Shown here one piece after another: positions 41,244 through 47,730 of a stretch of 64,000 bases of DNA. Positions within the stretch are counted from its first letter, which is position 1. Each line of letters starts with the position of its first letter. The position numbers and the translations under genes were made by a program. Source of the DNA: Hemileia vastatrix (taxonomy: Eukaryota; Basidiomycota; Pucciniomycetes; Pucciniales; Zaghouaniaceae); assembly GCA_030280995.1 (NCBI GenBank), contig JASXTE010000008.1, positions 27,734,193-27,798,192 of the forward strand, in the 5' to 3' direction. Below the pieces are notes generated by a model that searched no databases, was not told the DNA's origin, and saw nothing but the letters and a program-made list of their open reading frames with translations.

Positions 41244-41966
41244 TTGGAGATAATTCAAGTGGATTCTCAATTATTTTCTGTTAATATTACTTTGGAGTGC
41301 AAATACGTTTTGGACTTTTCTATATGTTTATTGGATTTACCCTGTTTTTCTATTAAATTTAAAAATGGTGAAAAAGGGAAAATGGGCCAAATTAGGTTGG
41401 ATAAAAATTGGAAGGGTATGTTTTATGACCTCCAGCAAGAGGTTAAACTGCAAGTATCTCCTTCTATTTTGGACCTCCAGCAAGAGGGTAAACTGCGAAA
41501 ATCTTATCAAAATCCAATAAAAAATCTTGGTATAATTAAAACACAAAAAAATAATTTATGTGAAAATGTTATTCCGTACCTCCAGCAAGAGGGTAAACTG
41601 CAAAAATCTTATCCAAATCCAATAAAAAATCTCAGTATAATTAAAACACAAAAAATTAATTTATGTGATAAGGTTGTTCCGGACCTCCAGCAAGAGGTTA
41701 AACTGCAAGTATCTCCTTCTATTACGGTCCTCCAGCAAGAGGGTAAACTGCAAAAATCTTATCAAAATCCAATAAAAAATCTCAGTATAATTAAAACACA
41801 AAAAAATAATTTTTGTGAAAATTTAATTCCAGTTCTCCGGCAAGAGGTTAAACTGCCAACTTTCTTTACGGGTGATTTACTGTTGGATAAGGGAAGCAAA
41901 GGTGTTGGAAAATCTGTTTATAAATTAGACGAGGGAAAGGAGAAAAGGGTAAAATTTAAAATCTAA
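41244..41966 (+). CDS. Repeat-rich linker of pol, made of 15- and 35-residue units
   Basis: Between protease and RT lies a frame dominated by repeats: LQQE(G/V)KL followed by either QVSPSI-type or KSYQNPIKNLSIIKTQK-type segments. Motif starts at 41429, 41474, 41579, 41684, 41729 and 41834 are spaced 45, 105, 105, 45, 105 bp, all multiples of three. At RNA level each LQQE..KL is the hairpin CCTC-loop-GAGG described below. No known domain. Whether it is translated as part of pol is not clear. Confidence 0.65.
   Translation: MEIIQVDSQLFSVNITLECKYVLDFSICLLDLPCFSIKFKNGEKGKMGQIRLDKNWKGMFYDLQQEVKLQVSPSILDLQQEGKLRKSYQNPIKNLGIIKTQKNNLCENVIPYLQQEGKLQKSYPNPIKNLSIIKTQKINLCDKVVPDLQQEVKLQVSPSITVLQQEGKLQKSYQNPIKNLSIIKTQKNNFCENLIPVLRQEVKLPTFFTGDLLLDKGSKGVGKSVYKLDEGKEKRVKFKI
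41429..41856 (+). repeat. Hairpin array 1: six CCTC/GAGG hairpins in coding sequence
   Basis: Six copies of a 4-bp stem (CCTC with GAGG; the sixth TCTC with GAGG, still pairing by G-T), loop CAGCAA (last CGGCAA), tail (T/G)TAAACTG. Starts are 41429, 41474, 41579, 41684, 41729 and 41834. Confidence 0.85.
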
Positions 41967-42161
41967 ATAAAATATTTTTCTAATTTTTCTTATTCCAATT
42001 CTGACAATGAAGAAGATTTATTTGATGAAATTTTTAATGGCAAATCAAAAGTAAATGTTTTACCTCAAGTTTATTTAGATGTGGATGCAGCCAAATATAA
42101 GAAGGTAGAAAATAAAGTTTGACCTATTAATGAACCGCTACCTGCCGAATTAAATCCACCC

Positions 42162-43184
42162 TTGAGAAGACCAAGGTTATCAAGAGATCCTTATGAAAGT
42201 CCCTTGGTTAAGAATCCGCCTGAATTTTCTGAGACGTCAAGAATCACTTTTGAGAGACTGGGTGTTGTTAATTTTGGACCTGATGGTTGGTTGTCTGGAG
42301 AAGAGAAGAAGTTGTTGTTGGATGTGATGGTCAAGCGAGAGAAGGCCATTGCTTTTGTAGAAGAGGAGAGGGGTGTGCTGAAGCATTCCTATGGGGAGCC
42401 TTACAAGATTCCTGTGGTATGTCATGAACCGTGGCAGCAGAAACCGATTCCTATTCCGGCTGCATTAAAAGAAGCCTATATTGAAGTTGTCAGAGAGCGG
42501 ATACGCACTGGACTGTATGAGCAATCAACGTCAAGTTATTCTAGTCCAGTATTTTGTATCAAGAAGCCAAATGGCAAGCTTAGAGTTGTTCATGATCTTA
42601 GGGAATTAAATAGGGTTACAATAAAGGATGCTGGGATACCGCCTAGTGCTGAGGAGTTTGTTGAAGCGTTTGCAGGGAGAGTGTGTTATGGTTTGGGAGA
42701 TATTATGGGTGGATATGATGAGAGAGAGTTACATCCGGACTCAAGGCCTCTCACTACATTCGATACGCCACTAGGACGTTTACAGTTAACAAGATTACCT
42801 CAAGGAGCAACAAATTCGGTTGCAGTTTATCAAGCTCAGATGGCTTGGATCCTTCAAGAAGAAATTCCACAATATGCTGGGATCTTTATAGATGATGGAG
42901 GAATTAAGGGACCAACAACCGACTATGATAACCAGGTGTTGGAAGAGAATCCCAGGATACGCAAATTCATTTGGAAGTTTGCAATTACATTAGAAAGAAT
43001 CTTGTTTCAAATTGAAGAGGCTGGTTTAACTATTTCTTTTTCAAAATTTTCCTGTTGTGTGCCAGCCTTAGAAATATTAGGCCATGTGGTATGTAGAGAG
43101 GGTAGGATTGTGTCCAAGAAGAAAGTTAACAAAATTCAGTCCTGGCCAAGACCCAAGAATACGACCAAAGTTAGAGGGTTTTAG
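42162..43184 (+). pseudogene. pol: Reverse transcriptase of the 12.3-kb element
   Basis: Begins near a conserved RPRLSRDPY and contains KKPNGKLRVVHDLRELN, a first catalytic aspartate in GLGDIMGGYD, the PQGATNS box, and the second catalytic pair in GIFIDDGGIKG. The usual Y-x-DD is here F-I-DD followed by GG. The thumb region ends ILGHVVCREGRI and KIQSWPRPKN. A TAG at 43182-43184, as from CAG, and a one-base loss near 43199 separate it from RNase H. Copies element RNA into DNA. Confidence 0.88.
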
Positions 43185-43204
43185 GCGTTTGCGTATATGT
43201 TAGA

Positions 43205-45571: not shown

Positions 45572-45800
45572 TGTTTATAAAAACCTTATCAACCTCCGCA
45601 ATGAGGATAAACTATGATATTTATGAAAATATATGGATACCTCCGCAACAAGGATAAACTATGACATTTATGAAATTTTATGGATCCCTCTGCAATGAGG
45701 ATAAACTATGATATCGACAAAATTTTATGGATTCCTCCGCAATGAGGATAAACTATGATGTTTATACAAATCTCATCAACCTCGGCAACGAGGATAAACT
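45547..45800 (+). repeat. Hairpin array 2: six tandem 46-47 bp units
   Basis: Units start at 45547, 45593, 45640, 45687, 45734 and 45780. Each has stem CCTC/GAGG (the third has AAGG, one mismatch), loop CGCAAT, CGCAAC, TGCAAT or GGCAAC, and tail ATAAACTATGAT. The first unit overlaps the pol stop codon. The sequence between units is AT-rich and less conserved. Confidence 0.88.
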
Positions 45801-46907
45801 ATCTTCTTTTTATCAAAATACTTTACTGTCGTTACACTGCCTATGGGCAACGAAACTTTGATGAAACTTAACAAAATGCAAGAAAATCTTCTTTGAAATT
45901 TTCAAAATTTAAAATTCTTAAAATATGGGTGAAGATAGTGTTGGAAAATTTTAAAAATTTATTGGAAGAAGTGTTCACAGGGGAACCTTCTTAATTTAAT
46001 ATTGGCAAGTGTGGGGGTAATTGATGGGCTGGCTGCTCTATACACAATTACCCCATAATGTTTGTTTCCAAAATTTTCCCTGTTTCTAGTTGAATCCTGG
46101 CTTTGTCTTTTAATTATAGGAAGTCCACTAAGACTATAAACTGGAACAAATCAAGAGACACTGCTCTCAACGCCGGATTCAATATTTTTTTATATATATA
46201 TTTTGATTTTGATTTTTTTATGTTAGATTGTGATTTCTTTCCTTTAAATATATATTATGAATTATTGCAAAGGTGATGCTCACTGGTGGTCTCTAATCAT
46301 TTTTATAAATTGGAGGGAGCCCACCCAGTGATCATCATTATAAAATTATCTTTTAAAAACTTTCATTTATTTTCATTTATTTTCATTTATTTTCAATTTC
46401 TCAAATTGTGTAACCACATCAAGTTGCACTTGGATGTGGGTATGATGTCGAGGGTACGGCTCATCAAATGGCCGGGGGGCATCTTTTAAAAATTTTATTT
46501 TGAAATTTTTTTATTATTATTACTTTTTTTATCTTTCTTTTCACATTTGTTTATCTTTCTTTAAAAATTAAATTTTAACTTTTATTTCAAAACTATCTTT
46601 TCTAAAATCTTTTATTTTAAATTAAAAATTAAAAATAAAATAAAAAAATAAAAATAAAAAAAATACAAAATAAAAAAATAAATAAATAAAAAAAATAAAA
46701 AAATAAAATAAATAAATAAAAAAATAAATAAAAAAAATAAATAAAAAAAATAATAAAAAAAAAAAATTAATTAAATCAAAATTATTATTATATTTCTTAG
46801 TTTTATTTTTCAGTCTTCATTCTTTTTAGTTTATTCATTTAGTTTAGATAGGAAACAGGGTCTAGGGGAACTCAATACCTATGGGATTTTACTTCAAGAT
46901 ATCTGTT
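45801..46907. other. 3' non-coding part of the 12.3-kb element
   Basis: No coding frame recognised. A single hairpin AGTC-CACTAA-GACT with tail ATAAACTGG lies at 46122-46144. From about 46600 to 46780 the sequence is a low-complexity (AAAT)n/(A)n stretch. Confidence 0.6.
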
Positions 46908-47730
46908 AGTCCTCCAAGACTTTAAACTGGCTACTTTTCAAGACATTCTTTAAGGTTTTTTTATGTGTATTTTGGAGCTGTTAGTCCTCCAAGACTTTAA
47001 ACTGGCTACTGTTCAAGACTTTCCTTAAGGTTTTATACAAATTTTGGAGCTGTTAGTCCTTCAAGACTTTAAACTGGCTAATTTTCAAGACTGTCATTAA
47101 AGATTTTATATTGGAGCTATTAGTCCTTCAAGACTTTAAACTGAATTTCAAGGATGTTCAAGATTTGATGGATATTTTTGGAGACAGATTTTTTATTTTA
47201 TTTTTTTTATAAATCAAATGTTAGGTCCACCAAGACCTTAAACTGGAGTGTTATCAAATGTTAGGTCCACCAAGACCTTAAACTGGACTATTATCAAGCT
47301 GTTGGGTCCACCATGACCTTAAACTGGATTTCTTATCAATCAAATGTCTGGTCCACCATGACTTTAAACTGGTAGTTCATTCATTGTTTAGTCCACTATG
47401 ACTTTAAACTGGAAAATTAATATCTGCAGGATAATTCAACATTCATTGGACCACTATGGCCTTATACTGGATTACTTGTCAATCAAATGTTTGGTCCACT
47501 ATGACATTAAACTGGATTATCAAATTTATTCAATCTTTGGTCAAGCCTAGGCCTTACTTAGGAATATTTCAAGTTATTTATGCACTTAAACAATCTTTGG
47601 TCCACCAAGACCATAAACTGGCAATCGATTATATGTTTGGTCTACCAAAACTTTAAACTGGAATGTCAATCTTGTTTGGATAACTCAATTCAATCTTTTA
47701 ATTTATCACTGTCCACTAAGACTCTAAACT
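46908..47730 (+). repeat. Hairpin array 3: about 15 units with AGTC/GACT or GGTC/GACC stems
   Basis: Four AGTC-(CTCCAA/CTTCAA)-GACT units at 46908, 46983, 47055 and 47122; then GGTC-CACCA(A/T)-GACC units at 47224, 47264 and 47305; GGTC/GACT (G-T pair) at 47350; AGTC-CACTAT-GACT at 47390; weaker copies at 47449 and 47493; GGTC-CACCAA-GACC at 47599; weaker copies near 47639 and 47709. The tail TTAAACTGG (or ATAAACTGG) is nearly constant. Spacing runs from about 40 to 105 bp. Confidence 0.85.

What the first reader, a model, noticed from the sequence alone, without database searches (positions are those of the whole stretch)
41429..47730. About 30 copies of a covarying hairpin motif in one retrotransposon
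Directly visible: a 4-bp stem, a six-base loop (CNCCAA, CAGCAA or CGCAAT type) and a fixed tail (T/A)TAAACTGG recur in gag-pol coding sequence, at the pol stop codon and through the 3' non-coding region. The stem changes from CCTC/GAGG to AGTC/GACT to GGTC/GACC on both sides together, with G-T pairs in transition copies (TCTC/GAGG, GGTC/GACT). Loop and tail hardly change. Such compensatory change points to a structured RNA element under selection, or to DNA cruciform sites. A role in packaging, Gag binding or translation is inference. I know of no described motif of this kind.
Basis: partly seen in the sequence, partly recalled or inferred. Interest (0 to 1): 0.87.

Follow-up and report, generated by a model that had tools for sequence, protein, structure and literature searches.

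The report
Repeated RNA hairpin inside a retrotransposon
A jumping gene in what looks like a rust fungus carries 29 copies of one short sequence whose ends stay complementary while changing, which suggests a small RNA fold used many times over, perhaps as a handle for packing the element's own RNA.

Summary
One Ty3/gypsy element (LTRs 37262-38405, 48402-49567) holds 29 sense-strand copies of a 23-nt motif between 41429 and 47732; nothing else in the window comes close (24.2 bits or more against 10.8). The TAAACT tail alone finds 27 copies: 23 have all four stem pairs and 4 have three, against 0 of 45 tail matches elsewhere with four. Stem pairs 1 and 2 change on both sides. In three arrays the motifs are more alike than the spacers. 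Nine copies lie in open frames (protease-RT linker, RNase H-integrase linker, end of pol), all in one phase; 20 are non-coding and irregularly spaced, so a peptide is not the common cause. I add that loop bases 7-9 can pair with tail bases 21-23 in 22 of 29 copies, a possible compact pseudoknot: suggestive, unproven. Compensatory events are few, only one element was available, and in-context folding does not favour the hairpin. Best reading: a multi-copy RNA recognition element in the genomic RNA, most likely for Gag binding and packaging; function is inferred. The host-genome search did not complete, so relatives are untested.

The parts
37262..38405 (+). 5' LTR
   Evidence: 97.2% identical to the 3' LTR over 1143 aligned bases, 32 substitutions, 26 of them transitions; repeats D3, D4, D8
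38582..40432 (+). gag region in two open frames (38582-38962, 38972-40432); no motif copy
   Evidence: ORFs; no Pfam match; a CCHC-type zinc knuckle (CSYCNRRGHRATVC) read by eye in ORF 38972-40432, motif type recalled
40453..41019 (+). protease
   Evidence: Pfam Asp_protease_2 1.3e-8, gag-asp_proteas, RVP
41429..41858 (+). motif array 1: six copies (starts 41429, 41474, 41579, 41684, 41729, 41834) in the PR-RT linker ORF 41244-41966; stem CCTC/GAGG (TCTC in the last), loop triplet GCA, tail triplet TGC; spacings 45 and 105
42162..43184 (+). reverse transcriptase
   Evidence: Pfam RVT_1 2.2e-11
43205..45313 (+). RNase H and integrase frame with an enlarged linker
   Evidence: Pfam RT_RNaseH, RT_RNaseH_2, Integrase_H2C2; rve below its cut-off; linker 253 aa against median 118 in the 63 of 120 homologues where both landmarks were found
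43834..43913 (+). motif copies 43834 and 43891 in the RNase H-IN linker; stem CCTC/GAGG, loop CCA with tail TGG
45547..45802 (+). motif array 2: six copies (starts 45547, 45593, 45640, 45687, 45734, 45780), 46-47 nt apart; the first overlaps the pol stop codon; stem CCTC/GAGG (CCTC/AAGG in 45640), tail CTAT; lacks the loop-tail pairing
46122..46144 (+). single motif copy, stem AGTC/GACT
46908..47144 (+). motif array 3a: four copies (46908, 46983, 47055, 47122), stem AGTC/GACT, 67-75 nt apart
47224..47732 (+). motif array 3b: ten copies (47224, 47264, 47305, 47350, 47390, 47448, 47493, 47599, 47639, 47710), stems GGTC/GACC, GGTC/GACT, AGTC/GACT and forms with one broken pair
48402..49567 (+). 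3' LTR
   Evidence: a purine-rich run lies just upstream

Best explanation
The motif is a small RNA recognition element in the sense (genomic) RNA of a Ty3/gypsy element: a 4-bp hairpin with a 6-nt loop and a constant NTAAACT tail, possibly closed into a compact H-type pseudoknot by loop bases 7-9 pairing with tail bases 21-23. It was multiplied by tandem duplication and sits at six separated places: two pol linkers, the pol end with the bases after it, and three stretches of the 3' non-coding region. The likeliest use is multivalent binding by an RNA-binding protein, first of all the element's own Gag, to select and condense its genomic RNA for particle assembly. Shown: the copies, their one orientation, the constant core, compensatory stem states, motif more alike than spacer in three arrays. 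Inferred: that the RNA folds, that a protein binds, which protein, and packaging as the purpose.
For: Tail-only retrieval still gives stems: 23 of 27 with four pairs, 4 of 27 with three, 0 of 45 elsewhere with four. Stem: 94.8% of cells paired against 27-50% when slid, 22 both-side-changed cells, 0 of 500 shuffles; pair 1-14 0 of 1000 and pair 2-13 4 of 1000 in a tree-aware null. Among the 13 of 15 copies 46122-47710 with A or G at column 1 and T or C at column 14, the one non-pairing combination (A with C) is absent, Fisher p 0.02 (table counted by hand, copies 47493 and 47710 left out, copies not independent). Motif identity 0.95, 0.97, 0.95 against spacer 0.68, 0.75, 0.60 in arrays 2, 3a and the first part of 3b (the last unit of each was left out, and array 1 and copies 47448-47710 were not measured). 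Loop-tail register 7-9:21-23: 22 of 29 copies fully paired in five letter combinations, the next of 56 registers 6. [quoted passage not shown] PMC4974528, section '7. RNA Packaging'). About 3.2 post-insertion changes are expected in stem bases against 5 broken pairs, so breaks may be decay.
Against: Few independent events (about three double changes at two pairs). Non-stem column pairs 14-23 and 2-14 also reach 0 of 1000 and 13-23 2 of 1000, so the null underrates common descent; two of the five shuffle measures do not exceed shuffles. Loop-tail pairing alone is not significant with the tree (helix score 63 of 1000, paired cells 331 of 1000), was looked for after seeing the data, and fails in array 2 (six copies) and 47710. 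In-context folding favours the hairpin in 10 of 29 copies, antisense 11 of 29; of nine isolated copies one had z below -2 and one preferred another fold. For Ty1, packaging sequences map to the 5' end and a packaging role of its pseudoknot could not be shown (PMC4974528, same section). No relative carrying the motif was found; the copy itself is broken in frame. No binding data.
Confidence: 0.42

Rival explanations
1. Satellite-like turnover: a repeat that happened to contain a short quasi-palindrome was amplified and moved within the element. The stem states reflect common descent or template switching that copies one arm onto the other, not selection for a fold.
For: Tandem arrays of 40-150 nt units. 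Retrotransposon-derived tandem repeats are a frequent satellite source (PMC7004042, title in listing). Template switching can create and repair stems (PMC8794818, abstract). Covariation rests on few events.
Against: The loop and tail core is constant across arrays with unlike spacers, and motif is more alike than spacer. Three G-U cells in the stem suggest stepwise change; template switching would give Watson-Crick pairs directly (inference).
Confidence: 0.27
2. A control element for translation, stability or localisation of the transcript, bound by a host protein, and not for packaging. Repeated 3' UTR stem-loops of an alphavirus and (recalled) exoribonuclease-resistant pseudoknots act this way.
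For: 20 of 29 copies lie 3' of the pol stop. A motif of three repeated sequences in the Sindbis virus 3' UTR takes part in translation in insect cells (PMC4709744, listing).
Against: Nine copies sit inside open frames, where ribosomes would displace bound factors (inference). No Rfam family at gathering score in the window; best loose match in the region E 0.23.
Confidence: 0.2
3. A DNA-level site: a repeated binding sequence for a transcription, silencing or replication protein, or a cruciform.
For: Sequence alone does not separate DNA from RNA. Stem wobbles fit the sense RNA (three G-U) about as well as the antisense (two C-A cells, which read G-U there) (inference), and in-context folding shows no sense preference.
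Against: A base-reading DNA protein should not tolerate double changes at two positions that hold complementarity (inference). Four base pairs are too few for cruciform extrusion (general knowledge).
Confidence: 0.08
4. A peptide repeat (L-x-x-E-x-K-L) in pol, with the 3' copies as its remains.
For: All nine coding copies are in the same codon phase.
Against: Non-coding spacings such as 46, 47, 47, 47, 46 and 40, 41, 45, 40 are mostly not multiples of three. Of the 120 listed homologues 18 match a loose form of the peptide, none more than twice (many are fragments). With TAA in one phase only two phases are stop-free, so agreement at three places is weak evidence.
Confidence: 0.03

Closest known systems
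Ty3 genomic RNA cis-elements (Saccharomyces)
   Same: Ty3/gypsy element; UTRs and POL needed for localisation and packaging (PMC11381356 passage; PMC4974528 section 7)
   Different: Packaging sequences there are not precisely defined; the passages I read name no repeated motif
Multiple dispersed packaging signals of RNA viruses
   Different: Those are degenerate and scattered (recalled); here the motif is nearly fixed and partly in tandem arrays, and no coat-protein contact is known
Tandem repeats within LTR retrotransposons
   Same: Tandem make-up (PMC7004042, title in listing); location in the 3' non-coding region recalled
   Different: Here arrays of different unit length and unlike spacers share one 23-nt motif with compensatory stem changes, also inside pol
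Repeated elements in the Sindbis virus 3' UTR
   Same: Repeated structured sequences in a genomic RNA (PMC4709744, listing)
   Different: Three repeats, in the UTR
Compact H-type pseudoknots, such as those at viral frameshift sites (recalled)
   Same: Short stem 1, 2-nt loop, 3-bp stem 2, 1-nt junction, A-containing third loop
   Different: 29 copies, 20 of them non-coding; stem 2 unproven and missing in array 2

Membership tests
Ty3/gypsy LTR retrotransposon | Two LTRs flanking the internal region | tested here: met
   37262-38405 and 48402-49567, 97.2% identical; a possible 4-bp target duplication ACGT/ATGT with one difference
Ty3/gypsy LTR retrotransposon | Order protease, RT, RNase H, integrase | tested here: met
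   Pfam
Ty3/gypsy LTR retrotransposon | Open gag-pol frames in this copy | tested here: not met
   Seven ORFs in three frames; a decayed copy
Dispersed packaging signals | Many copies of a shared motif in the genomic RNA | tested here: met
   29 copies, sense strand
Dispersed packaging signals | Motif shown on a stem-loop | tested here: inconclusive
   Covariation for, in-context folding not
Dispersed packaging signals | Binding by the coat or Gag protein and effect on assembly | not testable with these tools
   needs experiment
H-type pseudoknot | Loop-tail helix with compensatory changes | tested here: inconclusive
   22 of 29 copies fully paired, 5 combinations; 87.5% of cells against 6-33% when slid, score 2 of 500 and both-side-changed cells 33 of 500 in shuffles; with the tree 28 of 1000 for pair 7-23, 497 for 8-22, 63 for the helix
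Any Rfam family | Match at the curated score | tested here: not met
   0 matches in the window
Peptide repeat of pol | Frame kept in all copies and peptide in homologues | tested here: not met

The most novel reading that the evidence does not exclude
A 23-nt minimal pseudoknot, repeated 29 times along one retrotransposon RNA in pol linkers and 3' non-coding region, forms a multivalent address code read by Gag: a natural array of near-identical packaging signals in an LTR retrotransposon, evolving stem by stem while its core and AAAC tail stay fixed.
Probability: 0.18. Interest if true: 0.82.

Novelty: new variant of a known kind. Interest (0 to 1): 0.58.

Why it matters
How Ty3-type elements pick their own RNA is not precisely defined even in yeast (PMC4974528 section 7; PMC11381356 passage). 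A near-identical motif in 29 copies is an unusually easy handle: one synthetic 23-nt RNA tests folding and binding, and an array tests behaviour in a cell. If true it would also show an element making room for RNA signals by enlarging linkers in its polyprotein.

Tried and rejected
Relatives by protein: the RNase H-integrase frame gave 559 hits among the 7988 candidates scored, 120 listed, but proteins only, without DNA. The PR-RT linker gave none at E 10, gag none at E 0.001. Loose Rfam search of 41400-47800: E 0.23 and 0.96 only. A Pfam Rox3 match in the linker ORF is below its cut-off and was taken as chance. A fifth stem pair and an alternative loop-tail pairing for array 2 were looked for by eye and not found. 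The hairpin model found no further copy in the window (it was built from these copies). A decayed copy near 47539 (GGTC/GGCC, 7-nt loop) was left out of every count. Literature: ten answered searches; their titles and abstract starts showed no motif of this kind, but most subscription papers are not held. The pair counter collapsed identical rows (24 distinct of 29). R-scape was not available; the tree-aware null is my own script.
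Full report
The element. Two LTRs (37262-38405, 48402-49567; 1144 and 1166 bases, 32 substitutions in 1143 aligned columns) flank gag-like frames, a protease, RT, RNase H and an integrase. The order is that of Ty3/gypsy elements. The copy is decayed: seven open frames in three phases. Window G+C is 34.6%, close to the 33.8% given for A. psidii (PMC8063080, passages), but no call identified the host.

The motif. A search by TAAACT alone, blind to the stem, gives 27 sites between 41429 and 47734 on the + strand; 23 have four pairs at the expected place and 4 have three. 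Of 45 TAAACT sites elsewhere (both strands) none has four and 6 have three. Two more copies (43834, 47448) differ in the tail and were found by a combined score. A covariance model built from the 29 separates them: 24.2 to 38 bits, next 10.8 (the model was built from these copies). Constant or nearly constant are C4, A9, T3, G11, A12 and TAAACT; the 30 flanking columns on each side carry mostly under 0.6 bits, at most 0.83 (on the 27 copies).

Arrays. Four tandem groups (6, 6, 4 and 10 copies) have different units, and three copies stand alone. Within three arrays motif identity is 0.95, 0.97 and 0.95 against spacer 0.68, 0.75 and 0.60 (last unit of each left out, array 1 and copies 47448-47710 not measured). 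Nine copies are in open frames, all in one phase, at two linkers and the pol end. The RNase H-integrase linker is 253 residues between two landmarks against a median of 118 in the 63 of 120 listed homologues where both were found; the largest of those is 194. So this linker is enlarged, and two motif copies sit in the extra sequence. The other 20 copies are 3' of the pol stop, at spacings that mostly are not multiples of three.

Stem. In 24 distinct rows 94.8% of cells pair; sliding the partner gives 27-50%. Pair 1-14 shows CG 9, AU 5, GC 5, GU 2, UG 1, other 2; pair 2-13 shows GC 14, CG 10. Pairs 3-12 and 4-11 depart only by unpaired cells (1 and 2). Of the five measures, three are reached in 0 of 500 shuffles (cells paired, both-side-changed cells, covariation score); two are not exceptional (pairs changed on both sides 500 of 500, further types 456 of 500), and a slide by +1 keeps 15 both-side-changed cells. 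I wrote a tree-aware null that keeps each column's number of changes and places them at random on a FastTree tree of the same 25 columns: pair 1-14 was reached in 0 of 1000, pair 2-13 in 4 of 1000, the combined score of all seven pairs in 0 of 1000. This null is too lax, since column pairs 14-23 and 2-14 also give 0 of 1000 and 13-23 gives 2. In that tree the double changes reduce to one at pair 2 and about two at pair 1. Five copies have one broken pair, where neutral decay since insertion predicts about 3.2 changes in stem bases.

Loop and tail. Columns 7-9 and 21-23 pair completely in 22 of 29 copies, in five letter combinations; of 56 registers tried the next has 6. The states are GCA/TGC in array 1, CCA/TGG in most others, TCA/TGG then TCA/TGA in neighbouring copies 47055 and 47122, and CTA/TGG. 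That is the layout of a compact H-type pseudoknot: 4-bp stem, 2-nt loop, 3-bp stem, 1-nt junction, 6-nt third loop (NTAAAC in 27 copies). But array 2 breaks two of the three pairs in all six copies and 47710 breaks one. In shuffles the score is reached in 2 of 500 and both-side-changed cells in 33 of 500; with the tree it is not significant (pair 7-23 28 of 1000, pair 8-22 497, helix score 63, helix paired cells 331). I looked for it after seeing the data. I give it about 0.4.

Energy. Nine isolated copies fold at -2.3 to -8.2 kcal/mol; one had z below -2 and one preferred another fold. With 60 bases of flank on each side, 10 of 29 sense and 11 of 29 antisense copies have mean stem probability above 0.5. 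So, if it folds, it probably needs a protein or the second helix.

Function. One orientation, spread over pol and the 3' non-coding region, absent from gag and LTRs, repeated and highly uniform: this suits a multivalent protein-binding RNA site. Ty3 needs its UTRs and POL for retrosome localisation and packaging; against this, Ty1 packaging sequences map to its 5' end and its pseudoknot has no shown packaging role. Multi-site packaging signals are described in RNA viruses (PMC6281560, abstract). Gag-directed packaging is my first choice, at about 0.42 for the whole statement. The main rivals are neutral repeat turnover with template switching (PMC8794818, abstract) and a transcript-control element.

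Limits. One element copy; the host-genome search was unreachable in eleven tries; the collections that could be scanned hold viruses and prokaryotes, so their silence says nothing about rusts. In two rust transposon papers a word search found no 'hairpin' or 'tandem repeat' (PMC12210899; PMC8063080).

Noticed in passing
7319-9262: Nine copies of the palindrome TAATTTCGATCGAAATTA, 85 to 422 bases apart, with further near copies, much of it inside a large inverted repeat with arms 7738-8242 and 8757-9262 (97-98% complementary).
   Followed up: partly
37730-37822 and 48862-48975: Both LTRs carry an array of an 11-mer of GACTCCG type; the LTRs differ by 22 bases in length, probably two units.
   Followed up: no
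46014-46054: A 9-bp inverted repeat GGGGTAATT...AATTACCCC in the 3' non-coding region, seen by eye.
   Followed up: no
46619-46782: A long A-rich tract within the 3' non-coding region of the element.
   Followed up: no
47539-47562: A possible decayed thirtieth motif copy with a 7-nt loop, seen by eye and left out of the counts.
   Followed up: partly
22688-23746 and 33112-33344: A long A/G-rich simple-repeat tract and an AT-rich 13/26-nt satellite of TATGCATAATGAA type.
   Followed up: no
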